From contig NZ_JAJSDQ010000002.1 of NCBI RefSeq assembly GCF_021272345.1, positions 248,001-312,000 of the forward strand: a stretch of 64,000 nt of DNA, read 5' to 3'. This stretch comes from Ornithinimicrobium sediminis (GTDB lineage: Bacteria; Actinomycetota; Actinomycetes; Actinomycetales; Dermatophilaceae). Made by a program: the position numbers and the translations under genes. Of the stretch, positions 50,275-64,000 are shown in pieces; position 1 is the first letter of the stretch; every line of letters begins with the position of its first letter. Under the pieces are notes generated by a model. That model saw only the letters and a program-made list of their open reading frames with translations. It was not told the DNA's origin and made no database searches.

Positions 50275-52397
<2,123 letters not shown>

Positions 52398-54500
52398 ATG
52401 TTCATGGCTGAGACTTTCGGTCACCACCCGTGGACGGTGCAGGACCTAGTGGGCGGGGTTGCTAGCGGGACAGTGCGTCTGCCAGACATTCAACGGCCCT
52501 TTGTCTGGGCCAATGCGAAGGTGCGGGACCTAGTCGACTCGATGTACAAGGGCTTCCCAGTGGGGGAGTTGATGTTCTGGGAGAACACCGATGAGTCTCA
52601 CTCCCGGACTATCGGCTCAGAGCCCAAGACTCAACACGGGTCTATGCAGGTCATCGACGGACAGCAGCGTCTTACATCCCTATACGCCGTCGTCAAGGGT
52701 GCTCCCGTCCTCCGAGATGACTACCTCCCCGACCGGATCACCATCGCGTTCAATCCTCTGACGCAACGCTTCGAGGTGCCAACGGCGGCTACTCGGTCAG
52801 CAGAGTGGGTACAGGACATCAGGGACGTGTTCGACTCCCCGATCAAGGCAAGAAAGGCCTTCCTGAAGCGGTTGGCCAAGGCGCGGGAGGTCGACGGTCT
52901 GGAGCCCGAGGACGAAGAGCAGATCGAGACAGCCATCACGCGGTTGGGCGAGGTCCTTAATTACGAGTTCCAGGTCGTTCAACTCAAGCCAGCGGTGACC
53001 CGGGAGACCGTCGCTGACGTGTTCGTCAGGATCAACTCCGAGGGAGTCAAACTCTCCTCGACTGACTTCATCCTGACCTGGCTGTCGGTCTTCTGGGAGG
53101 AGGGCCGCACGCAGATGGAAGACTTCGCTCGGGCCTCTCGTTTCACCCCAGAGGAGATGAATCGGATGGGCCAGGACCCGACGGTACGCTGGACCCCCAA
53201 GAACGCTTATCTGACACTCGATCCGGGCAACGTCTTGCGCGTCGTCGTGGCTGTGGGGAACAAGCGTGCCCAACTGCAAGATGCGTACAACGCACTACGT
53301 GGCCGAGACCCACGAACCCGACAGATCGTCAAGAGCCTCCGCGAGGCCGAACTAAGCCGCCTCAAGGACGGTCAGGCACGAGCGCTAGATCCCAAGCACT
53401 GGGACGAGTTCCTCAAGGTCATCGAGCGGGCCGGCATCCGGACCAGCACGATGGTCACGTCCAAGAATGCTCTCCTCTTCTGCTACGCGTACTGGCTCAT
53501 CGGGCGGACCGAGTTCCACGTGCCCGTCGATGATCTACGCGAGGTGATGGCCAGGTGGTACTTCATGGCTCAGATCACTGGCCGGTACAGCGGCAGCGCC
53601 GAGACGCGAGGTCAAGAGGACCTCAACCGGTTCTCCGGGCTGTCACCCCGCCCGGAAGAGTTCGTCAAGGCCATCAACGGGCAGATCGAGACCGCGCTCA
53701 CTGATGACTGGTGGAGGGTCACTCTCCCGGAGGACCTGCACACCTCGTCCATGACGGGTCCCGCGTACACGGGCTACATCGCGGCCCTGAACATCCTTGA
53801 TGCCGATGTCTTGCTCTCGACCCTGAAGGTCAAGGACTGGATCGACCCCAACCGGCGACCTGTAAAGGGTATCGAGAAGCACCACCTCTTCCCGAAGGAC
53901 CACCTACGCACTGCTTTGGGAGTGACCACGACCAGGCAGATTAACCAAGTCGCGAATCAGGCGCTCGTGGAGTGGTCTGACAACATTGATATCTCCAACA
54001 CTGCACCAGCGACGTATTGGCCTGCTCAGGTTGAGGACAAGCAGATCGGCAGCGATCGGCTTGCTGAGCAAGCCTGGTGGCATGCCCTCCCCGAGGGATG
54101 GGTCGGTATGGGCTACTCCGTCTTTCTGGAACGACGGCGTCGACTCATCGCAGATGTCACGCGCGAGGGCTTCCGCAAACTCGCCGATCCGAACTACCGG
54201 CCCTCCCCACCAGCGGACGCGCCACGGACCGAACCGGCGATGCCGACATTCGACGCCCTCGTCAGGTCGGGGGTGCTCCCGATCGGTACACTCCTGACCC
54301 CCGCCGATGCCGAGACTGATTCCATCGCGGAAGTAACGGAGGATGGCACGATCCGGCTCGACGACACCGAGCATCGGACTCCGGATCTGGCAGCCAAAGC
54401 AGACGGCGCTGAGGATGTTGACGGCTGGACGTACTGGGAGGCGCAGTTCGATGAGCCCATCGCTCTGGCCGAACTGCGGGCGGCTGGATACCCAGATTGA
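52398..54500 (+). CDS. DUF262-HNH endonuclease-type protein with C-terminal RAMA-like domain
   Basis: A 700-aa protein related to the GmrSD family of type IV (modified-DNA) restriction proteins. The N-terminal DUF262 domain has the DGQQR motif at 87-91 (MQVIDGQQRLTSLYAV), where DUF262 proteins bind and hydrolyse NTP. An HNH-like motif KGIEKHHLFPKDHLR has H495-H496, followed by an Asn-rich stretch with DNIDISN. The last 86 residues (FDALVRSGVLPIGTLLTPAD, TEDGTIRLD, GWTYWEAQF) fit a RAMA domain, which occurs on restriction enzymes and adenine methylases. ATG at 52398; ATG at 52404 is an alternative. It is likely a defence effector beside a type I RM operon. The exact target is not known. Confidence 0.78.
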   Translation: MFMAETFGHHPWTVQDLVGGVASGTVRLPDIQRPFVWANAKVRDLVDSMYKGFPVGELMFWENTDESHSRTIGSEPKTQHGSMQVIDGQQRLTSLYAVVKGAPVLRDDYLPDRITIAFNPLTQRFEVPTAATRSAEWVQDIRDVFDSPIKARKAFLKRLAKAREVDGLEPEDEEQIETAITRLGEVLNYEFQVVQLKPAVTRETVADVFVRINSEGVKLSSTDFILTWLSVFWEEGRTQMEDFARASRFTPEEMNRMGQDPTVRWTPKNAYLTLDPGNVLRVVVAVGNKRAQLQDAYNALRGRDPRTRQIVKSLREAELSRLKDGQARALDPKHWDEFLKVIERAGIRTSTMVTSKNALLFCYAYWLIGRTEFHVPVDDLREVMARWYFMAQITGRYSGSAETRGQEDLNRFSGLSPRPEEFVKAINGQIETALTDDWWRVTLPEDLHTSSMTGPAYTGYIAALNILDADVLLSTLKVKDWIDPNRRPVKGIEKHHLFPKDHLRTALGVTTTRQINQVANQALVEWSDNIDISNTAPATYWPAQVEDKQIGSDRLAEQAWWHALPEGWVGMGYSVFLERRRRLIADVTREGFRKLADPNYRPSPPADAPRTEPAMPTFDALVRSGVLPIGTLLTPADAETDSIAEVTEDGTIRLDDTEHRTPDLAAKADGAEDVDGWTYWEAQFDEPIALAELRAAGYPD

Positions 54501-54718
54501 TCGACGGGGTGGCTCGACTGACTGTGCACCTCGGCGCGAGGGCTACTAGCGTCCGCCCCATGACACCTCCGGAAGCATGCAATAAGTGCCGAGTGGTGTA
54601 TGTGCGACAGGGGCCGCGTTGATGGGGGGTTCTGATCCGAGCGAGTTTGACCCGTCACCTGCAGCGCCGTCGTCCTAGGCTGGGCGACGCACCCTAGACA
54701 CTGGAATCGAGAGCACAT

Positions 54719-56323
54719 ATGGCACCACGTGGGACCAAGACGGCTTCACTTGGCTTGGAGGATGCACTCTGGGCATCTGCCAACCAACTGCGGTCGAGCA
54801 TGGATGCTGCTGAGTACAAGCACGTCGTTCTGGGGCTGCTCTTTTTGAAGTACATCTCGGACAAGTTCGAGTTCCACCGCGTCCGTCTAAACAATCTAGT
54901 CCAGGACGAGTCGAGCGACTACTTCATGCCCACGGCGGCGGCACGGCAGAGCGTGCTGGACGATCGCGATGAGTACACCGCTGTCGGGGTCTTTTGGGTA
55001 CCGGAAGGTCACCGCTGGAGCGACCTGCGTAAGGCTGCGAAGCAGGCCGACCTTGGTGCCCGGATCGACACCGCGATGGAAGCGGTGGAGAAGGACAACC
55101 CTTCACTGAAAGGTGTGCTTCCCAAGAACTTCAACCGGCGCGAACTCACCGCCCTGACCCTCGCTGGTCTCATCGACACCTTCTCGCGGGATGACCTCGC
55201 TGCCGCCGAACACGATGGCCTAGACGTGCTCGGACGCGTCTACGAGTACTTCCTCGCGCAGTTCGCTTCCGATGAGGGGAAGAACGGCGGAGAGTTCTAC
55301 ACCCCCCGCTCGGTCGTCTCGCTGATCGTGGAGATGCTCCAGCCCTTCAACGGACGGGTGTATGACCCCTGCTGCGGGTCGGGCGGAATGTTTGTCCAGG
55401 CTGAGCACTTCGTCACGGCTCATGGTGGCGCGCGCAACGACATTTCGGTCTTCGGCCAGGAGCAGAACCCCACGACCTGGCGTCTGGCGAAGATGAACCT
55501 GGCCATCCGGGGTATCGAAGCAAACCTTGGCCCGGAGTGGGGCGACTCTTTTCACGACAACAAGCACCCCGACCTGAGGGCCGACTTCATCCTGGCCAAC
55601 CCGCCGTTCAACGTCTCGAACTGGGGTGGCGAACGGCTCACGACTGACCCCCGCTGGGAGTACGGCACGCCGCCTCCTGGCAACGCGAACTACGCCTGGC
55701 TCCAGCACATGTTCCACCACCTGGCACCCACGGGAACGATGGGAGTGGTCTTGGCGAACGGGTCGTTGACGGTCAACTCGTCTGGCCAGGCTGACATCCG
55801 ACGCAGAATGGTCCAGGACGATGCGGTGGAGTGCATCGTCGCTCTCCCATCCCAGTTATTCTACTCCGTGCAGATCCCCGTCTCTTTGTGGTTCCTTACC
55901 AAGGACAAAAGCGCCCGAAGGGTGAAGCCGGAGCGCCCTCAGCGGGATCGCCAAGGTGAGGTTCTCTTCATCGACGCCCGCGAGATGGGATACATGGAGT
56001 CACGTACCCACCGCAATCTCTCACCCGAGGACGCAGCGAAGATCGCGGCGGCCTACAACGCCTGGCGCGGCGACCCAGACCTCCCACCGTTTGAGGACGT
56101 ACCGGGCTTCTGCGTCTCGGTGACAAACGAACAGGTGGCCGAAGCAAACTATGCTTTGAGTCCCGGACGTTTCGTTGGCACCGAAGAGGCCGAGGTCGAT
56201 GCCATGCCGGTCGACGAACGGATCGCCCTGCTCAGCCGCACGGTGCGGGAGGCCTTCGAGCGGCGGGCCGAACTCCAGGGACGCATCGTCGCGGCGCTAG
56301 ATTCGCTGGAGTCGGACGAGTGA
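54719..56323 (+). CDS. hsdM: type I restriction-modification methyltransferase subunit HsdM
   Basis: A 534-aa N6-adenine DNA methyltransferase. The N-terminal HsdM_N helical domain (LEDALWASANQLRSSMDAAE, LGLLFLKYISDKFE) is followed by the SAM motif DPCCGSGGMF at 216-225 and the catalytic motif ILANPPFNVS (NPPF at 294-297). GGEFYTPRSVVSLIVEML is the typical entry to the catalytic domain. HsdM works in an M2S1 complex with HsdS. The ATG at 54719 follows a 218-base gap without other genes. The stop overlaps the hsdS start as GTGA. Confidence 0.95.
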   Translation: MAPRGTKTASLGLEDALWASANQLRSSMDAAEYKHVVLGLLFLKYISDKFEFHRVRLNNLVQDESSDYFMPTAAARQSVLDDRDEYTAVGVFWVPEGHRWSDLRKAAKQADLGARIDTAMEAVEKDNPSLKGVLPKNFNRRELTALTLAGLIDTFSRDDLAAAEHDGLDVLGRVYEYFLAQFASDEGKNGGEFYTPRSVVSLIVEMLQPFNGRVYDPCCGSGGMFVQAEHFVTAHGGARNDISVFGQEQNPTTWRLAKMNLAIRGIEANLGPEWGDSFHDNKHPDLRADFILANPPFNVSNWGGERLTTDPRWEYGTPPPGNANYAWLQHMFHHLAPTGTMGVVLANGSLTVNSSGQADIRRRMVQDDAVECIVALPSQLFYSVQIPVSLWFLTKDKSARRVKPERPQRDRQGEVLFIDAREMGYMESRTHRNLSPEDAAKIAAAYNAWRGDPDLPPFEDVPGFCVSVTNEQVAEANYALSPGRFVGTEEAEVDAMPVDERIALLSRTVREAFERRAELQGRIVAALDSLESDE

Positions 56324-57482
56324 ACACGCAGTGGGAAGAGTCGGACCTCCAATCCGTCTGCGCGGGGGATGGCTTGATCCAGACTGGTCCGTTCGGTTCG
56401 CAGTTGCACATGAGCGACTACACGGCGGTCGGTGTGCCCGTCATTATGCCTACGAACATCGGCGATGGTCGCGTCGTTGAGTTGGGGATCATGCGGACAT
56501 CGCCACAACTCTTGCCCGCCACAGGGTGGAACCGGGTGACATCGTGTACTCCCGGCGAGGCGACATCACGAAGCGGGGTCTCATCACCCCGACCGAGGCA
56601 GGCTGGCTGTGCGGGACCGGGTGTCTGCTAGTGAGGCCGTCCGCACGAGTTGATCCGCTCTGGTTGTCCTTTTGGTTGAGTCAACCAAAGATCCACCGGT
56701 GGTTGCTCAACCAGTCAGTGGGCGCCACCATGGCAAACCTGAACACCGACATCCTCAGTCGCCTCCCCGTCCTACTACCGCCGCGACCTGAGCAGGAGCG
56801 CATAGCACGTGTGCTCGGGGCCTTCGATGATCTCATCGACACGAACCTAAGACTCGCAATCAGCGAGGAGCGCCTGGCGCAGGTGCTGGCTTCCCAGGTC
56901 CCGGAGCAGGTGCCCCTGGACCAACTGGCGACCTTTCCGAAATTGAAACAGCGTCGCCCGCTGGGGACAGTTGACCACTTCTCGATTCCGGCGTTCGACG
57001 CGGGCCGCCTCTCGCTGCGCGAATCTGGTGACAGGATCCTCAGCGGCAAGCACACCTTGACTGAACCCTCTGTTCTAGTGTCGCGCTTGAACCCGTCCAC
57101 AGCGCGGACCTGGATGGCATATCCCGGAGAGAGAGAGGCGGTCTGCTCGCCCGAGTTTGTCGTGGCTATGGGTGCCGCCGATGTGGACGCCGAGGAGGTA
57201 TGGGCCGTGGCCAGCACGGATGACTTCTGGAGCCAGATGCAAGGGTCTGCCAGCGGCACCACCAACAGTCGTCAGCGCGTAGACAAGGCCGCAGTCCCAA
57301 GGATCATGGTTCCAGACGTTCGCATGCTAGCGCCGAGTGCCCGCGTGGCGATCACCGCTCTAGTGCAAGGAGCGGGCCAAGGTCGGACAGAGGCTGCGGA
57401 ACTTGTCAGTCAGCGCGATGAACTCCTTCCGCTCTTGATGTCGGGCGATTTAAGGGTGTCTAGCCTGGAGGGGGTTGCCTAG
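56320..57482 (+). pseudogene. hsdS: type I specificity subunit HsdS, interrupted by a one-base frameshift
   Basis: The DNA-recognition subunit. The first frame runs from GTG 56320 through TGPFGSQLHMSDYTAVGVPV and IMPTNIGDGRVVELGIM, then leaves the family pattern after SPQLL. The family pattern resumes in the +2 frame as VEPGDIVYSRRGDITKRG and continues through the first target domain, the spacer ARVLGAFDDLIDTNLRLAI and the second target domain to 57482. Adding one base at about 56511-56520 (TTGCCCGCC) restores ARHRVEPGD and one 387-aa frame. Whether this is a true mutation, phase variation or a sequencing error cannot be told. As written, specificity is lost, and with it methylation and cleavage by the complex. 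Confidence 0.85.
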
Positions 57483-57484
57483 TC

Positions 57485-60400
57485 ATGGTCGTGGCGGAGG
57501 CTGACTTGGAGGACTGGGTTATGGAGATGCTGGCCCATCAGGGTTGGCAGACCATACATGGGGCTGACATCGCGCCGGGCATGCCGAGTGCGGAGCGCTC
57601 GGATTATCGCGAGGTCGTTCTGGTGGAGCGACTTCGTGACTCAATCCACGGGCTCAACCCCGGCCTTCCAAGCAGCGCCGTCGAGGACGCCATCAAGGCT
57701 GCGCTCCGCCCGGAGTCGGGAGTCATCCAGACTGAGAATTGGCGGACGTACCAATTGCTGGTGTTCGGGGTGCCGGTCGAGTACCGAGACACCGAGGGAG
57801 CGCTGCGGAGCGTTCGGGCGCGACTGGTGGATTGGTGCGACCTGGCCGCCAACAACCTGGTGGCCGTAAATCAGTTCACGGTGCAAGGGCCCAAGAAGAC
57901 GCGGCGTCCCGATGTGGTCCTTTTCGTCAACGGGCTCCCCTTGTGCGTGGTCGAGTTGAAGAAGCCGGGCGAGGAACACGCCACGATCGGGGGGGCTTTC
58001 AACCAGATTCAGACCTACAAGTCGCAGGTCCCTGACCTGTTCACGTGGAACCAAGGCGTGGTCATCTCGGACGGCTTGCTCGCTCAGATGGGGACTGTGA
58101 CGGCTCCGGCGAACCACTTCCAGGCGTGGAAGACCATCGATGGTAGCAACCTGGTGTCCAGTTACCGCCCTCAGGTCGAGGTCATGGTTGCCGGGTACCT
58201 TCGCCCCGACGTGTTCCTGGACTGGGTGCGCAACTTTGTGGCCTTTTCGGGCGATGGGGAAAGAGCCACCAAGATCGGAGCGAAGTACCACCAGTACTGG
58301 GCGGTGACCAAGGCTGTAGCGCAGACTGTTGAGGCGGTCGAGAATGACGGTCGGGCGGGGGTCGTCTGGCACACCCAGGGGTCGGGCAAGTCCTTCGAGA
58401 TGGCCTGGTACGCGGGTGCGCTGAGCCGACACCCAGCGTTGGAGAACCCGACTCTGGTCGTGCTCACAGACCGCAACGACCTGGACAACCAACTGTTCGA
58501 GGAGACGTTCGCCGCGACCAAGCCGGGCGCTCCACTGCTGGACCCGCCGGTGCAGGCCGAGACCCGTCAGGAGTTGAAGGACCTGCTCACAGGGCGGCAG
58601 TCGGGCGGGATCATCTTCAGCACGATCCAGAAGTTCGGCCTGACCAAGGACGAGCGGGAAGCGGGCATCTCCTTCCCCACGCTCTCGGAGCGCACGAACA
58701 TCGTGGTGATGGTGGATGAGGCCCACCGTTCGAACTATGACTTCATCGACGGCTTCGCTCGTCACTTGCGGGATGGCTTGCCCAACGCCACGTTCATCGG
58801 CTTCACCGGCACCCCGATCGAGGCCAAAGACAAATCCACGATAGCCGTCTTTGGACCCGTCATCGATGCCTACGACCTCACCCAGGCGGTCGAGGACGGT
58901 GCCACGGTCAAGGTGCTCTATGAGGCCCGACTCGCCAAGGTGCGGCTCCCCAAAAGGGCGTTCGATGACATTAACGAGGCGTTCGCAGAAGCCGTCTCCG
59001 GAACCGAGGAAGAGGCTCAGGAGCGTCTCAAGAGCAAGTGGTCGAGGATCGAGGCCATCGTCGGTGCGGACGAGCGACTAGAGGAGTTGGCCAAGGACAT
59101 CCTTTCCCACTGGGACCGCACTCACGAGATCATGCCCCAGTCCAAGTGCATGATCGTCACCATGTCGCGCCGGATCGCAGTTGCCCTCCACGACAAGTTC
59201 AAGGCGTTGCGTCCGCAGTGGTACGACGCTGACGACGAACGGGGACGGATGAAGGTCGTCATGACCGGCAGCGCAACCGACCCCGAAGGATGGCAGGAGC
59301 ACATTCGCAACAAGGCTCAAATGCGAGCGCTCAAGGCAAGGGCCTCAGATCCGGACGACCCACTGGAAGTCGTGATCGTCAGGGACATGTGGCTGACAGG
59401 GTTCGACTCGCCGTCGATGACGACCATGTATGTGGACAAGCCGATGCGCGGCGTGTCGCTGATGCAGGCGATCACCCGGGTCAACCGGACCTTTAAGGAC
59501 AAGCCCGCAGGGCTCATCGTGGACTACATCGGCGTCGCGGAAGACCTGAAGGAAGCCCTGTCTAACTACACCAAGCGCGACCAGGAAAACGGCCAGATCG
59601 GTGCCGCCATCGAAGACACCGCCGTCCCGGAGATGCTTCAGGAGCACCACATTGTGTGCTCCATCCTGGCTGGCTTTCAGTGGCGTCCCCTGGTAGACGA
59701 CACCTCTCCCAAGGCATTCCTCAACGCTGTCTTGGCGTGCGTGGAATGGCTGATGGCCGGGGAGCACGCCCGGAACGCGACGGACGGCCTGGGGGCCGCC
59801 GGAGCCCAGAAGCCACTCACCGTGAAGCAGCGGTTCGTGGAGCACACCAAGCGGCTACGGTCGTTCTTCTCCCTCGTCCCAGCCACCCCAGAGGCGACCC
59901 GCATCCGCGAGGATGTGGCGTACTTCGACACCGTACGGGCTGCCATCGCCAAGATCGAGAACCAGGGCCGGGGAGCCACAGACGCCAACGCCGAACTTGA
60001 CACCGCGATCCGGCAGATCGTCTCGGAGAATATGACCGGGACTGGGGTGGTAGACATCTACGCCGAGGCTGGGATCGCCAACCCCGACATCTCTCTCATC
60101 GACGAGGGATTCGTCCAGAAGATCACCGAGTCCGACCGCCCCAACATCCAGTTGGAAGCGCTGAAGCGACTGCTCAGCAGCGAGATCAAGGCCATCGCCA
60201 AGCGCAACGTGGTGAAGGGTCGCGAGTTCTCCGAGATGCTAAACGACTCGTTGCTTCGTTACCAGAATCGAAGCCTCGACACGGCCACCGTGGTGGCCGA
60301 ACTCGTCGGCCTCGCGCGCGCCATGAACGCTGAGCACGACCGAGGGGCCAGCACCGGCCTGTCGGGGAACGAACTCGCCTTCTACGACGCCTTGCGCACC

Positions 60401-60649
60401 AACGAGTCCGCCGTCAAGGCCATGCAAGACGAGGTGATGAAACAGATCGCTCACGAACTGACCGAGATCGTCCGACGCGACGCCAAGACCGACTGGGCAG
60501 TCAAAGAGCAAGTACGGGCAAAGTTGCGGACCACCATCAAGCGGCTGCTGCTCAAGCACGGCTACCCGCCCGACAGGACCCACGAAGCCACCGAACTCAT
60601 CCTGAAGCAGGCAGAGGTCATGGGTTCGGAGATGGACGAGGAGCGATGA
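57485..60649 (+). CDS. hsdR: type I restriction endonuclease subunit HsdR
   Basis: A 1054-aa DNA translocase and nuclease. The N-terminal PD-(D/E)XK nuclease has RPDVVLFVNG (D143) and CVVELKKPG (E157, K159), with the Q of FNQIQTYKS. The SF2 motor has Walker A WHTQGSGKSFEMAW (near 297-303), the DEAH box at 411-414 (VMVDEAHRSNYD), GFTGTPIEAKD (motif III) and VNRTF later. The C-terminal region contains the HsdM/S contact helices. All catalytic residues are present. The ATG at 57485 starts 2 bases after the hsdS stop. Its activity would require HsdS, which is frameshifted. Confidence 0.95.
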   Translation: MVVAEADLEDWVMEMLAHQGWQTIHGADIAPGMPSAERSDYREVVLVERLRDSIHGLNPGLPSSAVEDAIKAALRPESGVIQTENWRTYQLLVFGVPVEYRDTEGALRSVRARLVDWCDLAANNLVAVNQFTVQGPKKTRRPDVVLFVNGLPLCVVELKKPGEEHATIGGAFNQIQTYKSQVPDLFTWNQGVVISDGLLAQMGTVTAPANHFQAWKTIDGSNLVSSYRPQVEVMVAGYLRPDVFLDWVRNFVAFSGDGERATKIGAKYHQYWAVTKAVAQTVEAVENDGRAGVVWHTQGSGKSFEMAWYAGALSRHPALENPTLVVLTDRNDLDNQLFEETFAATKPGAPLLDPPVQAETRQELKDLLTGRQSGGIIFSTIQKFGLTKDEREAGISFPTLSERTNIVVMVDEAHRSNYDFIDGFARHLRDGLPNATFIGFTGTPIEAKDKSTIAVFGPVIDAYDLTQAVEDGATVKVLYEARLAKVRLPKRAFDDINEAFAEAVSGTEEEAQERLKSKWSRIEAIVGADERLEELAKDILSHWDRTHEIMPQSKCMIVTMSRRIAVALHDKFKALRPQWYDADDERGRMKVVMTGSATDPEGWQEHIRNKAQMRALKARASDPDDPLEVVIVRDMWLTGFDSPSMTTMYVDKPMRGVSLMQAITRVNRTFKDKPAGLIVDYIGVAEDLKEALSNYTKRDQENGQIGAAIEDTAVPEMLQEHHIVCSILAGFQWRPLVDDTSPKAFLNAVLACVEWLMAGEHARNATDGLGAAGAQKPLTVKQRFVEHTKRLRSFFSLVPATPEATRIREDVAYFDTVRAAIAKIENQGRGATDANAELDTAIRQIVSENMTGTGVVDIYAEAGIANPDISLIDEGFVQKITESDRPNIQLEALKRLLSSEIKAIAKRNVVKGREFSEMLNDSLLRYQNRSLDTATVVAELVGLARAMNAEHDRGASTGLSGNELAFYDALRTNESAVKAMQDEVMKQIAHELTEIVRRDAKTDWAVKEQVRAKLRTTIKRLLLKHGYPPDRTHEATELILKQAEVMGSEMDEER

Positions 60650-60665
60650 ACCAAGCATTTGCCGG

Positions 60666-60881
60666 ATGCAAGCCCACCTCGCCGACGCGGTCCCCAAACT
60701 CCGGGGCCTGGCCGAGTTCGCCGAAGAGCACGGCCAGCAGTACGGACGCATCGAGTCCGTCGCCAAGGTCGCAGGAGACCTGCGAGTCCTCGACATGACA
60801 AAACCCCACGTCCGGTCCGCCGTCCGGCAGACCGAGGACGCTAAAGCCCTGTACACCGGCGACGTCGCCACGGACTACTGA
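60666..60881 (+). CDS. 71-aa unknown protein between hsdR and a nuclease
   Basis: A small Ala/Glu/Arg-rich predicted helical protein, MQAHLADAVPKLRGLAEFAE ... DVATDY. It begins 17 bases after hsdR and ends 2 bases before the next gene's ATG, so it is almost certainly co-transcribed. Codon use is like its neighbours. I find no match in memory. It might be a partner, immunity or regulatory protein for the adjoining nuclease; this is only inference from position. Confidence 0.55.
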   Translation: MQAHLADAVPKLRGLAEFAEEHGQQYGRIESVAKVAGDLRVLDMTKPHVRSAVRQTEDAKALYTGDVATDY

Positions 60882-60883
60882 CC

Positions 60884-61993
60884 ATGACCCTGCGGATCGA
60901 CTACGCGTTGCCGTTGGGCTCGGAATCCCGGTGGTCCGACATGCTCGCCACCCTGGTCGCCACCGACCCCGAACCGATGTGCCGCCTCCTGGATCTGGAG
61001 GTCCCGGCTGCTGCGGTGCAGGTGCACCGTGAGGTAGCGGTGGACCGGGCCAACCGACCCGACATCGTCCTGACCCACGACGGTCAACGGGTCGCGGTCA
61101 TCGAAATCAAGGTCCTGGCCGGTCTGGGGTACCGCCAGTTGCTGCGGTACCAGGCCGCCGAGCCCGGGGCGAGGGCTTACGTCTTGGTGTATCCGCGAAG
61201 GCTCGCGCTTGACGTGACCGGTGCGCCGGATTGGCGAGGACTGGACTGGGAGGACCTGCTCGACTGCTACACCTCCAGCAGCCACCCCTGGGTCGCTCAG
61301 ACAGCGGCTGCGTGGTGCCACCATCTGGCTACCTCGCTGCCCCGCGTGGACGCTTCCACGGTCTGGGGTGACCTGGACGAGGGGCAGGACTTCGTTCTGG
61401 CTCTCAGGGCCCGCATGGCGTGGCTTTACAGCAACTACCAGCCTCCTGAGGGAATCGACCTCGACCTCGTCGGCTCCGCAGCCGGCGTGAGTTGGGTCCT
61501 GCGGCAGATCGCCGACGCCCCCCGCTCCGGTTACCAGATGGTCGCCGAAGTTGAGGAGAACCTGCCGGTGCGGGACTACCCGAAGTACCACTACGCCAGC
61601 AACCGGCACCAACCACTCGGCCCCAGCGCCAAGGTGATGCTCATGCAACCCGAAGTGCGCACCTCCGCCGGGTTCGACTGGGAGTACCTGCACGCGCTCT
61701 GGCCGACCATGGCAGCCGCCCGCACGGACTGGGTCACCCACGCAGCCCGGCCCCGCGCCGCTCATGACCGGGAGGGCCACCAGCGGATCGTGGCCGCCGG
61801 AGCGCCCCGCTACCTCGGTGTCGGGTTCGGTGAAGCCCAGGCACGCCAACGCGGGGGTGGCTGCCTCTTCGGAGCCAGAGTCCAATACCCGCCCGACATC
61901 ACCTTGCAGCAGGTGATCATCGAACTCCGGTCGCTCGGAAGACTGGTCACGGACCTGTCCCGAGTCTCGTCTCCAGGGTCTGACCCGAGATGA
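60884..61993 (+). CDS. PD-(D/E)XK nuclease-like protein of the restriction island
   Basis: A 369-aa protein. The N-terminal part shows a PD-(D/E)XK core: RPDIVLTHDGQR with D60, VAVIEIKV with E74 and K76, and the following QLLRYQ. This fits the PDDEXK_4-type predicted nucleases that accompany restriction systems. The C-terminal 200 residues contain no known domain (WEYLHALWPTMAAART is a helical block). The start is an ATG two bases after the stop of the 71-aa gene. It has no signal peptide. Its nuclease activity is predicted from the motif only. Confidence 0.65.
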   Translation: MTLRIDYALPLGSESRWSDMLATLVATDPEPMCRLLDLEVPAAAVQVHREVAVDRANRPDIVLTHDGQRVAVIEIKVLAGLGYRQLLRYQAAEPGARAYVLVYPRRLALDVTGAPDWRGLDWEDLLDCYTSSSHPWVAQTAAAWCHHLATSLPRVDASTVWGDLDEGQDFVLALRARMAWLYSNYQPPEGIDLDLVGSAAGVSWVLRQIADAPRSGYQMVAEVEENLPVRDYPKYHYASNRHQPLGPSAKVMLMQPEVRTSAGFDWEYLHALWPTMAAARTDWVTHAARPRAAHDREGHQRIVAAGAPRYLGVGFGEAQARQRGGGCLFGARVQYPPDITLQQVIIELRSLGRLVTDLSRVSSPGSDPR

Positions 61994-62186
61994 CAGCGCT
62001 GAAGCGCTGCCGTGGTGCTGAGACGGGATCCTTGCGGGCGCTCCGCGCGGTAACTCTCCCTCGCGCCGAACCGCTCGCTGCGCTCGCTCCCGGACGCTCG
62101 GTCGCTCTTTTTCGCGGCTCGGTGGTCGCTGCGCTCCCACCTCACGGGGATGCGTCACCGCGTCCCCGAAGGTTGGTGATTCCACA

Positions 62187-63284
62187 GTGACCCCACCGCC
62201 GGACAGGACGGAGACGCCACCCCCGGAGCAACCCTGGGACGTCCAACGGTTCCTTGAACAAGTTCACAGCGACGCCGCGCTCACGGCAGCCAAGCAGATC
62301 GTGCTCATGGTCATGGCCGATGCTGCACGTGACGCCGGGCGCATCCAAGAGGGGGCCTTCGGTATCTCCCAGCGGTGTGCGTACTCGGAGTCGGTTGTGC
62401 AGAAGGTGCTTGCGGGCCGTCCCATCACGGACGAAGCGGTTGGGACATACGTCACGAAGATCCGCGAGGGTGACCTCCTCACGATGACGTCGGCTGTCTA
62501 CGACTTGCACTGCAGACCGTCCAATGGTCCGTTGAGTACGCATGCTGACGTCTCTTCTAGTAGTAGTAGTGGTAGTTATCCGTACTCGACGGACCTTCGC
62601 GGTTGGTTGAGGCGGACGATGCCTGCGCACGATGGCTGGCGAGCGCGTCGCGCACGTGCTGCTTATCCGCTGGTCCTGCACCTGTCGTTGACCACCGGCC
62701 CCTGGTCCACTGCGCGCCTGGAGTCCGTAGGCACCAGCAGTACTGCGTCTAAGAGGAGTCGCGCGTTCCTGGCCGAGTACGGACTCCTGGAGTCCAGTCG
62801 GGGGTGGGTCGATGGGGTGCGATGGGAAAGGCTGCCGCAGGCTCTGAACCAAGTTGCGGTCGACCATGAGACCAACGGACTGGGACAACGACTGGCAGAC
62901 GAGTACCGCCGGAAGGGTCACCGCGCACGGGCAGGGATGTTGAGGCGGGGGAAGATTGTGGAGCGCGAGAACCTGTGGGTGAAACTGTCCACCTACTCCG
63001 GGACCAAGGCGCTGGCCGACTTCGTGCTTGAACTCGAGGGAGACGGTGATGAGGTCCGCTCGCACACGGCTCCCGAGCGGCAGCGGATTGATGAGGTGCT
63101 CACCCAGATTCATCAGCACATGGAGACTGGGTCCACCTTGGGTGAAGCCATAGGCAAGGTGCAGCGGCACGGACTTCCTTTGGACTTCAGAGTCCTGTTG
63201 CAGCAGGCGCTAGGAGTCGAGGCGGAGATCCGTGGTCTGGATAGCGAGATCATGCTCGACGAGCAAGGAGAGGCAAACCAGTAG
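62187..63284 (+). CDS. unknown protein with winged-helix-like N-terminus
   Basis: A 365-aa protein starting at a GTG. After a Pro-rich lead, residues about 28-85 (AALTAAKQIVLMVMADAARD, GISQRCAYSESVVQKVL) resemble the winged helix-turn-helix seen in plasmid replication initiators and phage proteins. A Ser-rich linker (SSSSSS) is encoded by AGT repeats. Two later helical blocks (RRARAAYPLVLHLSLTT and LGQRLADEYRRKGHRARAGM) and an acidic tail follow. I do not recognise the whole protein. It may belong to a mobile element, which would agree with the island. No partner genes are visible. Confidence 0.5.
   Translation: MTPPPDRTETPPPEQPWDVQRFLEQVHSDAALTAAKQIVLMVMADAARDAGRIQEGAFGISQRCAYSESVVQKVLAGRPITDEAVGTYVTKIREGDLLTMTSAVYDLHCRPSNGPLSTHADVSSSSSSGSYPYSTDLRGWLRRTMPAHDGWRARRARAAYPLVLHLSLTTGPWSTARLESVGTSSTASKRSRAFLAEYGLLESSRGWVDGVRWERLPQALNQVAVDHETNGLGQRLADEYRRKGHRARAGMLRRGKIVERENLWVKLSTYSGTKALADFVLELEGDGDEVRSHTAPERQRIDEVLTQIHQHMETGSTLGEAIGKVQRHGLPLDFRVLLQQALGVEAEIRGLDSEIMLDEQGEANQ
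62555..62576 (+). repeat. short AGT/GGT trinucleotide run
   Basis: Four AGT units followed by GGT AGT encode the Ser-rich linker of the unknown protein; such a run is prone to slippage. Confidence 0.55.
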
Positions 63285-63777
63285 GAAGGTGTGCCGCGAG
63301 GAGACGCATAGCCTGACCCGGTCGCATGGTCATCTGTCGGCCCGCACTGCTCAGCCCCTTGCGCGACACCTGTCGGTTCGAGAGGACGTCACGGTGATCA
63401 CACCCCTCCGCACCCGAGCGGCAGCGTCGGGGCGACGCCGTGTGCACCCATGCCCCTTGGTCCCGAGCGCCCGCCCCGGTGGACGCCGTCAGGGAGAACC
63501 GGACGGCCAGGTCGTCATCGGTCCTCCGCGCGGTGCAGCCTCGTCGCCGTCCTGTCCGGCGGCGGCGAACGTGTCGATCCCCGAAGCATGAAGGTCGGCG
63601 TTCTCAACAGGGAGCAGGGCTGTCGATCGACGCTACGGCTTCGCCTCGTTCCTGGGTGGGAGTCCGGACCACCCCGCTACTCCTCGATCTCGCAGCACCG
63701 CGTCAAGTACAACCTCACCGTCGTGTCCGGGAGCGGGGGCCGCTCATCCCGGCAAGCGACCGGCAGGACTCAAGTGG
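63285..63777. other. 493-base interval with no supported gene
   Basis: Several frames are open, as expected from the GC content, but none has a good ribosome binding site, a recognisable domain or the codon pattern of the neighbours. I see no tRNA, terminator or repeat in it. Confidence 0.5.
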
Positions 63778-63999
63778 TCAACCGAGGTGACGCCGCGTCT
63801 GAGGTAGGGGCAGTTTCCTAATGGTCCAGCCGAGAGCGCTGAGGTCATAGAGACCATCGCAACGGGGCTCTAGCCGGTCCTGCGCGACTAGGCACTGGCT
63901 CGCCCACTCGTGAGGCTCTGCTGTCCACCCGAGGAGATCGGTCAGTGTGTCTCGATCAATCACGGGCGTATCCCAGCCCTTCCACTTCTCGGAGTAGTC
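63778..63999 (-). CDS. unknown gene, C-terminal part
   Basis: The minus strand is open from the window edge to the stop at 63778-63780: 73 residues beginning DYSEKWKGWDTPVIDRDTL and ending RKLPLPQTRRHLG. The coding-like composition and continuity beyond the GTG at 63963 suggest the real start is outside the window. No family is recognised. Confidence 0.5.
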   Translation of the reverse strand, partial: DYSEKWKGWDTPVIDRDTLTDLLGWTAEPHEWASQCLVAQDRLEPRCDGLYDLSALGWTIRKLPLPQTRRHLG

Positions 64000-64000
64000 C

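What the first reader, a model, noticed from the sequence alone, without database searches (positions are those of the whole stretch)
52398..54500. DUF262-HNH-RAMA fusion: candidate new modification-dependent defence protein
DUF262 and HNH halves are the GmrSD type IV layout. Here a RAMA-like module is added at the C-terminus, a domain thought to recognise DNA or modified bases. The protein sits just before a type I RM operon and could act on DNA bearing the wrong, or the operon's own, adenine methylation. I do not know this exact architecture as a characterised system.
Basis: partly seen in the sequence, partly recalled or inferred. Interest (0 to 1): 0.7.

Follow-up and report, generated by a model that had tools for sequence, protein, structure and literature searches.

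The report
GmrSD-family restriction enzyme with RAMA tail
A mobile island in an actinobacterium carries what looks like a DNA-cutting defence enzyme of a known family (GmrSD) with an unusual extra DNA-binding tail; half of the relatives examined with the same tail lie near a DNA methyltransferase gene, but nothing found here shows that the tail reads methylated adenine.

Summary
The ORF at 52398-54500 (700 codons; start probably 52404) is DUF262 (PF03235, E 2.4e-29), a long linker, an HNH motif and a C-terminal RAMA domain (PF18755; E 7.6e-8, or 2.9e-9 on the domain alone; homologous to the CcrM tail). Of 46 loci compared, 18 carry RAMA, 3 a Schlafen/AlbA_2 domain in its place, 25 nothing: the tail is a variable module on a constant GmrSD core.

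The link with restriction is real: 20 of 46 genes lie within 10 kb of a DNA amino-methyltransferase hit (1.0 expected), with type I, type III-like or Eco57I-like partners, and one gene is embedded between hsdS and hsdR. But RAMA-bearing genes (9 of 18) are not more linked than the rest (11 of 28, p 0.55).

The adenine-methylation reading is not supported: CcrM and MPND RAMA contact only the DNA backbone, 6mA did not change MPND binding, and 18 of 18 RAMA-bearing records carry candidate amino-methyltransferases. I judge it a type IV-like, NTP-regulated nuclease with an accessory DNA-binding tail that complements neighbouring RM systems, as TgvAB and BrxU do. New variant of a known kind.

The parts
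52398..54500 (+). GmrSD-RAMA gene, 700 aa (likely start 52404, 698 aa)
52440..53084 (+). DUF262 / GmrSD_N domain (residues 15-229); DGQQR motif at 52656-52670, FVRINS at 53022-53039
   Evidence: PF03235 E 2.4e-29; motif positions; DGQQR in 43 of 43 homologues
53877..53996 (+). HNH nuclease motif (KHHLFPKDHL ... NQVANQ ... SDNIDIS)
   Evidence: positions; H495, H496, N516, N529 each in 42 of 43 and N520 in 43 of 43 homologues; profile support indirect
54207..54482 (+). RAMA domain (residues 604-695), with DGWTYW at 54420-54437
   Evidence: PF18755; CcrM 6pbd C-terminal domain
54719..56323 (+). hsdM, type I methyltransferase, 534 aa
   Evidence: PF02384 E 6e-104, PF12161; PADLOC MTase_I
56320..57482 (+). 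hsdS, split over two frames (56320-56631 and 56526-57482): apparent frameshift near 56500-56530
   Evidence: the best PADLOC Specificity_I profile is matched only from its position 139
57485..60649 (+). hsdR, type I restriction subunit, 1054 aa
   Evidence: HSDR_N, SWI2_SNF2, T1RH-like_C; TIGR00348 over its cut-off
60884..61993 (+). PD-(D/E)XK-like protein, 369 aa, unassigned cargo
   Evidence: PF14281 E 3.5e-4 and PF04313 E 3.3e-5, both just under cut-off
51836..51848 (.). Left 13-bp direct repeat (attachment-like site) at the guaA 3' end, stop codon included; the right copy lies outside the window at window-scale 72460-72472
51849..64000 (.). Part of the genomic island inside the window (island about 20.6 kb, continues to about 72.5 kb)
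   Evidence: GC 0.632 vs 0.724 before it; next conserved gene found within 1 kb of guaA in 13 of 13 same-genus genomes fetched

Best explanation
It is a single-chain GmrSD-family (type IV-like) restriction nuclease with an added C-terminal RAMA domain, carried with a type I RM operon on an island at guaA. Inferred mechanism: the DUF262 half binds and hydrolyses NTP at DGQQR and senses a foreign (hyper-modified) DNA feature, as in GmrSD, BrxU and SspE; this switches on the HNH half, which nicks or cuts. RAMA adds sequence-independent grip on the DNA backbone, so it tethers or positions the enzyme rather than deciding which base is recognised. It complements the RM system beside it: RM cuts unmodified phage DNA, this enzyme cuts DNA whose modification defeats RM. 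Shown here: the domain make-up, conserved motifs, variable tail, recurrent neighbourhood with RM of several types, island setting. Inferred: activity, target, and the division of labour.
For: DUF262 and RAMA profile matches; BrxU as best solved relative of the family profile (E 9e-25) and SspE weakly (0.0098); nucleotide and HNH motifs nearly invariant in 43 homologues; tail is RAMA, AlbA_2 or absent on one core; 20 of 46 loci within 10 kb of a methyltransferase hit, 1.0 expected; in L068 the gene lies between hsdS and hsdR, one base after hsdS and overlapping the next gene by four; TgvAB, a GmrSD-family pair embedded in a type I operon, acts against Tevenvirinae (PMC11411939 abstract and one section); CcrM and MPND RAMA bind the DNA backbone.
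Against: PF07510 does not match the window protein itself. By my reading the CcrM residues S315, H317 and N330 are not kept in the window protein, although the equivalents of G331, W332, L349 and R350 are, so even DNA binding by this RAMA is unproven. RAMA is the most divergent segment in 21 of 22 pairs compared, which would also suit a specificity module. Linkage with RM may be mere defence-island clustering: 9 of 18 RAMA loci lack a methyltransferase hit within 10 kb. In the whole-protein Pfam scan only 12 of 31 aligned members, of which 16 are RAMA-bearing, show RAMA at E<=0.1. No structure model could be made.
Confidence: 0.6

Rival explanations
1. Adenine-methylation-dependent type IV enzyme: RAMA reads 6mA in a particular sequence context absent from the host's own sites and licenses HNH cleavage.
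For: RAMA is homologous to the tail of the adenine methylase CcrM and has been proposed as a 6mA reader (passage in PMC11037411; an earlier MPND pull-down cited in PMC9963953); 9 of 18 RAMA loci lie within 10 kb of an amino-methyltransferase hit; RAMA diverges faster than the core.
Against: 6mA had no effect on MPND binding, and both RAMA-DNA structures lack base contacts by RAMA. 18 of 18 RAMA-bearing records contain candidate N6/N4 methyltransferases, so a general 6mA cutter would attack its host. RAMA-less relatives have similar neighbours.
Confidence: 0.15
2. SspE-like licensing: the enzyme is activated by the mark that the partner methylase places on host DNA, hydrolyses NTP, lets go of self DNA and nicks unmarked phage DNA, making it a second effector of the RM system.
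For: SspE, a DUF262-DUF1524 protein, needs host modification and uses its N-terminal cavity and C-terminal DNA-binding region (PMC9646914 abstract); operon-like junctions with type I genes (L068) and a type III-like pair (L032, 9-bp gap).
Against: SspE is only a weak relative (E 0.0098); partners are of unrelated types; 26 of 46 loci have no methyltransferase hit within 10 kb; the window's own hsdS appears frameshifted.
Confidence: 0.13
3. The gene is an independent defence gene that merely co-travels in defence islands, and RAMA is a drifting accessory without a distinct role.
For: Neighbours differ from locus to locus: no neighbour family is shared by more than 7 of 22 loci clustered; RAMA is poorly conserved, with 2 invariant columns in 16 rows; the tail can be absent.
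Against: RAMA is detectable at E<=0.1 in 17 of 17 scanned tails of RAMA-bearing members and W680 is invariant in 16 of 16; touching or overlapping frames in L068 and a 9-bp gap in L032 argue for co-expression.
Confidence: 0.12

Closest known systems
GmrSD family (Eco94GmrSD, BrxU) of type IV restriction enzymes
   Same: DUF262 with DGQQR, linker, C-terminal HNH in one chain; BrxU 7p9k is the best solved match of the family profile
   Different: Extra RAMA tail; window HNH not matched by PF07510; target modification untested
TgvAB (GmrSD-family pair embedded in a type I RM operon, V. cholerae VPI-2)
   Same: GmrSD-type enzyme beside or inside a type I RM operon on a genomic island (abstract and section 10 read)
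   Different: Two proteins rather than one chain; no RAMA is mentioned in the parts I read
GmrSD homologues with an additional DUF4357 domain (PMC4619093, 2015)
   Same: GmrSD core plus an extra domain; 4 of 16 RAMA tails here also match DUF4357 weakly, on overlapping residues in the three such tails examined, L066, L063 and L075
   Different: Labelled DUF4357, of unknown function; no RAMA is named in that paper's main text (section 12 and passages read)
CcrM C-terminal (RAMA) domain
   Same: Homologous by profile over the domain (E 1.9e-8); Gly-Trp and Leu-Arg landmarks kept (my reading)
   Different: In CcrM it is attached to a methyltransferase and holds the non-target strand
SspE
   Same: DUF262 plus HNH-type nuclease regulated by NTP hydrolysis
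   Different: Weak similarity; belongs to phosphorothioation systems
RAMA-Mrr-NTPase and GIY-YIG-RAMA fusions (mentioned in PMC11037411)
   Same: RAMA added to a restriction-type nuclease (passage)
   Different: Other nuclease domains; no DUF262 is mentioned there

Membership tests
[quoted passage not shown]
   E 2.4e-29, over cut-off; 31 of 31 aligned members at E<=0.1
[quoted passage not shown]
   DGQQR at residues 87-91, 43 of 43 homologues
[quoted passage not shown]
   No match for the window protein at E<=1; 8 of 31 members match at E<=0.1; HNH motif residues conserved in at least 42 of 43; weak BrxU HNH alignment, 11.7 bits
[quoted passage not shown]
   needs protein and phage assays
RAMA domain (PF18755) | Profile match | tested here: met
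   37.3 bits vs cut-off 35.2 on the domain alone; 32.7 bits, under the cut-off, in the whole protein; 16 of 16 tails at E<=0.1, weakest of those printed L071 at 0.01
RAMA domain (PF18755) | Same fold as CcrM/MPND RAMA | not tested
6mA-dependent type IV restriction enzyme | Cleavage requires N6-methyladenine | not testable with these tools
   Indirect evidence is against a general 6mA cutter
Subunit of the type I RM system | Constant association with hsdM/S/R | tested here: not met
   3 of 18 RAMA loci have a type I operon adjacent or around them (window, L068, L069)

The most novel reading that the evidence does not exclude
GmrSD cores with exchangeable C-terminal modules (RAMA, AlbA_2, none) are second effectors plugged into RM systems of any type: RAMA engages DNA carrying or lacking the partner methylase's mark and, SspE-like, licenses the NTP-driven HNH nuclease, so RM-resistant phages are still nicked. 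This would be a modification-sensing effector arm shared by type I and type III RM.
Probability: 0.12. Interest if true: 0.7.

Novelty: new variant of a known kind. Interest (0 to 1): 0.36.

Why it matters
It gives a natural experiment on what RAMA does: the same nuclease core occurs with RAMA, with AlbA_2, or with neither, next to RM systems of different types. Swapping tails would show directly whether RAMA sets target specificity, reads adenine methylation, or only adds DNA affinity, a question left open by the conflicting MPND results. It also extends the TgvAB theme (type IV enzymes built into RM operons) to actinobacteria and to type III-like systems.

Tried and rejected
Rejected: (1) a chance RAMA match: three lines agree. 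(2) RAMA explains the RM link: RAMA-bearing and other loci do not differ. (3) Dedicated partner of this type I operon: tblastn with the window's hsdM or hsdR found anything (E<=1e-6) in only 9 of 45 other loci, mostly at 24-38% identity. (4) Proven repeated gain of RAMA: the best tree needs 3 changes, but one clade is not rejected (p-AU 0.125 for 43 rows; 0.148 for 37 rows with six long or odd rows left out), so the number of gains is open. (5) Phage-borne RAMA form: of the 24 viral-contig relatives with long matches that I checked, out of 80 returned of 108 found, none has a RAMA-like tail by eye; L119 and L140 have AlbA_2-like tails by eye and L130 another extension; 8 of 50,697 phage records matched at E<=1e-5, none beyond residue 595; the first viral-contig scan found none. 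Of the 30 listed of 95 plasmid records only Euzebya reaches far into the RAMA part. Led nowhere: NCBIfam gave only the CcrM match for this protein; Pfam on the 60884 and 62187 ORFs gave weak or no matches; clustering of neighbours in 22 loci found no constant partner. Structure prediction gave no model.

Dropped rows: the tree and motif counts leave out L074 and L075 (frameshifted) and L080 (frame starts inside the protein): 43 of 46. L074's tail was not scanned with Pfam; it was called RAMA from its likeness to L070/L072. Several contigs end within 10 kb of the gene, so the link count is a lower bound. The linkage statistic uses positions typed over, with hits of two families in one gene entered once; hits within 3 kb were merged; the contigs of L032 and L034 were taken from hits that fit their locus ranges and that of L035 from L041; L033's contig number was not identified, but none of its three hits fits within 10 kb of its contig position. 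The 22 pairs are those with DUF262 identity over 58% among 12 of the 16 RAMA rows, so they are not independent.

Full report
OBSERVATION. The open frame at 52398-54500 (+) is 700 codons long. The close relatives begin at the equivalent of residue 3, so the start is more likely 52404. Pfam finds GmrSD_N (DUF262) at 15-229 with E 2.4e-29 and RAMA at 604-695 with E 7.6e-8, slightly under the curated cut-off; the last 110 residues alone exceed the cut-off. phmmer against solved structures gives BrxU (7p9k) for residues 13-260 and the CcrM tail (6pbd) for residues 608-692; a profile of 16 tails hits CcrM with E 1.9e-8. The HNH part has no Pfam match at E<=1 in this protein, but its motif KHHLFPKDHL...N...N...N is nearly invariant (H495, H496, N516, N529 each in 42 of 43, N520 in 43 of 43) and DGQQR is invariant (43 of 43). 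PF07510 matches 8 of 31 family members at E<=0.1. So the described three-part protein is real.

RELATIVES. Searches of 396 phylum, 394 class and 396 order genomes gave 38 (E<=1e-10), 6 and 22 (both E<=1e-40) genomes with a match, the window's own included each time. Named relatives are in a Propionibacterium MAG, Brevibacterium senegalense, Nesterenkonia and Georgenia (68-74% identity) and a Euzebya plasmid (36%). In the window's genus 3 of 31 genomes match at E<=1e-10, the window included; the other two are a 37% match that ends at residue 599 and a short match to residues 12-96. I took flanks for 40 loci, which with the window, L032-L035 and L063 makes 46.

THE TAIL IS A VARIABLE MODULE. Of the 46, 18 end in RAMA, 3 in a Schlafen AlbA_2 domain (PF04326 in 3 of 31 scanned; L083 E 2.2e-15) and 25 end at about residue 600. 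RAMA was found by Pfam in 16 of 16 aligned tails at E<=0.1 (weakest of those printed, L071, 0.01) and in L075; in whole-protein scans it reaches E<=0.1 in 12 of 31 members, 16 of which are RAMA-bearing. On a 43-row tree of the shared core, RAMA, AlbA_2 and four tail-less proteins fall inside one 23-row group (100/100 support; midpoint root), and the RAMA pair L066/L069 is sister to the AlbA_2 pair L076/L083 (99/96), whose cores are 50-54% identical to theirs. The best tree needs 3 changes of RAMA, but holding RAMA together is not rejected (p-AU 0.125; 0.148 with six long or odd rows left out). So exchange of tails is likely and the number of gains open. RAMA is the most divergent segment in 21 of 22 compared pairs of RAMA proteins, which fits a fast-changing recognition module or weak constraint.

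NEIGHBOURHOOD. Window: a type I operon 218 bp downstream. L068: hsdM-hsdS-[GmrSD-RAMA]-[115-aa DUF4357 protein]-hsdR; the gene starts one base after hsdS and overlaps the next gene by four. L069: gene upstream of hsdM-hsdS-hsdR. L032: nine bases after a type III-like mod-res pair, with a ThsB-like TIR gene after it. L064: before a type III-like pair. L034: convergent with a helicase and an Eco57I-like methylase. L063: near a PLD-helicase, a 1363-aa Eco57I-type methylase and an annotated phosphorothioated-DNA-binding nuclease. L066 and L075: a methylase hit 4-6 kb away. The other nine RAMA loci have no hit within 10 kb. Over all 46, using PF02384, PF01555 and PF07669 hits in whole genomes or records, 20 lie within 10 kb of a hit; 1.03 are expected from the number of hits and genome sizes. 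RAMA loci (9 of 18) and the others (11 of 28) do not differ (Fisher p 0.55). The link therefore belongs to the GmrSD core, or to defence islands generally, not to RAMA.

ISLAND. GC falls from 0.724 before the guaA stop to 0.632 after it. In 13 of 13 same-genus genomes fetched (of 30 others searched), the gene that follows guaA aligns to window-scale 73.25 kb and lies within 1 kb of guaA. A 13-bp repeat, CGAGTGGGAGTGA, sits on the guaA stop (51836-51848) and at 72460-72472; it was the only exact repeat of 12 or more bases between the two stretches compared (51601-52200 and 72001-73400). A phage-integrase-family gene at L114:7289-8440 (window-scale 71289-72440) lies 19 bases before the right copy, and a second lies at L114:2551-3630. 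So the gene and the type I operon most likely travel on an integrated island of about 20.6 kb. That guaA is an integration site in other bacteria is recalled; the papers listed were not read.

MECHANISM. By family knowledge, DUF262 binds NTP at DGQQR and the HNH half cuts; GmrSD and BrxU act on modified cytosines, and SspE nicks after phosphorothioate sensing (PMC10952713, first part of five read; PMC9646914, abstract). For RAMA the direct evidence is sober: in CcrM it makes phosphate contacts on the non-target strand (PMC6787082, passages), and in MPND it binds duplex DNA without sequence preference and 6mA made no difference (PMC9963953, passages), although an earlier pull-down cited there had suggested 6mA binding. 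In the window protein the equivalents of CcrM G331, W332, L349 and R350 are present, while S315, H317 and N330 are not (my reading). Each of the 18 RAMA-bearing records (17 genomes and one plasmid) has at least one candidate amino-methyltransferase hit, so general 6mA-dependent cutting would endanger the host. I therefore favour a type IV-like nuclease with RAMA as an accessory DNA grip (0.6), over a context-specific 6mA reader (0.15), an SspE-like effector licensed by the partner's mark (0.13), or a tail of no distinct role (0.12). None of these was tested by experiment.

KNOWN OR NEW. TgvAB shows that GmrSD-type enzymes can be built into a type I operon and protect against phages with modified cytosines (PMC11411939, abstract and section 10). 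GmrSD homologues with DUF4357, DUF4268 or DNA_binding_1 were listed in 2015 (PMC4619093, section 12), and DUF4357 matches residues inside the RAMA match in three tails examined (L066, L063, L075). RAMA fused to other nucleases is mentioned in PMC11037411 (passage), DUF3780-RAMA in PMC12839542 (passages), and RAMA-HNH fusions as ongoing work in an author note of PMC12707154 (passage). Searches of the held library for DUF262 with 'RAMA domain', 'RAMA domain' with methyltransferase and restriction, RAMA with HARE-HTH, DUF4357 with DUF262 and RAMA with ParB, HNH and adenine listed no paper in which I saw a DUF262-HNH-RAMA protein described; I read passages, not whole papers, and no supplements. 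Two older papers that I recall as treating RAMA architectures are not held, so the architecture may already be drawn there. I file it as a new variant of a known kind.

Noticed in passing
window 51836-64000 and on to window-scale 72472 (L210, L114): An island of about 20.6 kb at the 3' end of guaA, with 13-bp flanking repeats, two phage-integrase-family genes and a weak REP_ORF2-G2P match (PF23343, E 1.1e-4, under cut-off); the site lacks it in 13 of 13 same-genus genomes fetched.
   Followed up: yes
window 56320-57482: hsdS is split over two overlapping frames (apparent frameshift near 56500-56530), so the type I system may be inactive or the assembly wrong.
   Followed up: partly
L068:11059-11406: A 115-aa protein with a weak stand-alone DUF4357 match (PF14267, E 1.6e-4, under cut-off) lies directly after the GmrSD-RAMA gene inside a type I operon, before hsdR.
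   Followed up: no
L076, L079, L083 (and L119, L140 by eye): The same GmrSD core with a Schlafen AlbA_2 C-terminal domain instead of RAMA.
   Followed up: partly
L083:9059-11332: One AlbA_2-bearing member has lost the HH pair and other HNH motif residues, so its nuclease half looks inactive while the tail is kept.
   Followed up: no
window 60884-61993; L072:15642-17036: A PD-(D/E)XK-like protein follows hsdR; another PDDEXK_4 protein (PF14281, E 1.9e-9) abuts the RAMA gene in L072.
   Followed up: no
L074 and L075: Two RAMA-bearing homologues are broken by frameshifts (near residues 97-100 and 417-419), so the gene is sometimes lost or these assemblies err.
   Followed up: no
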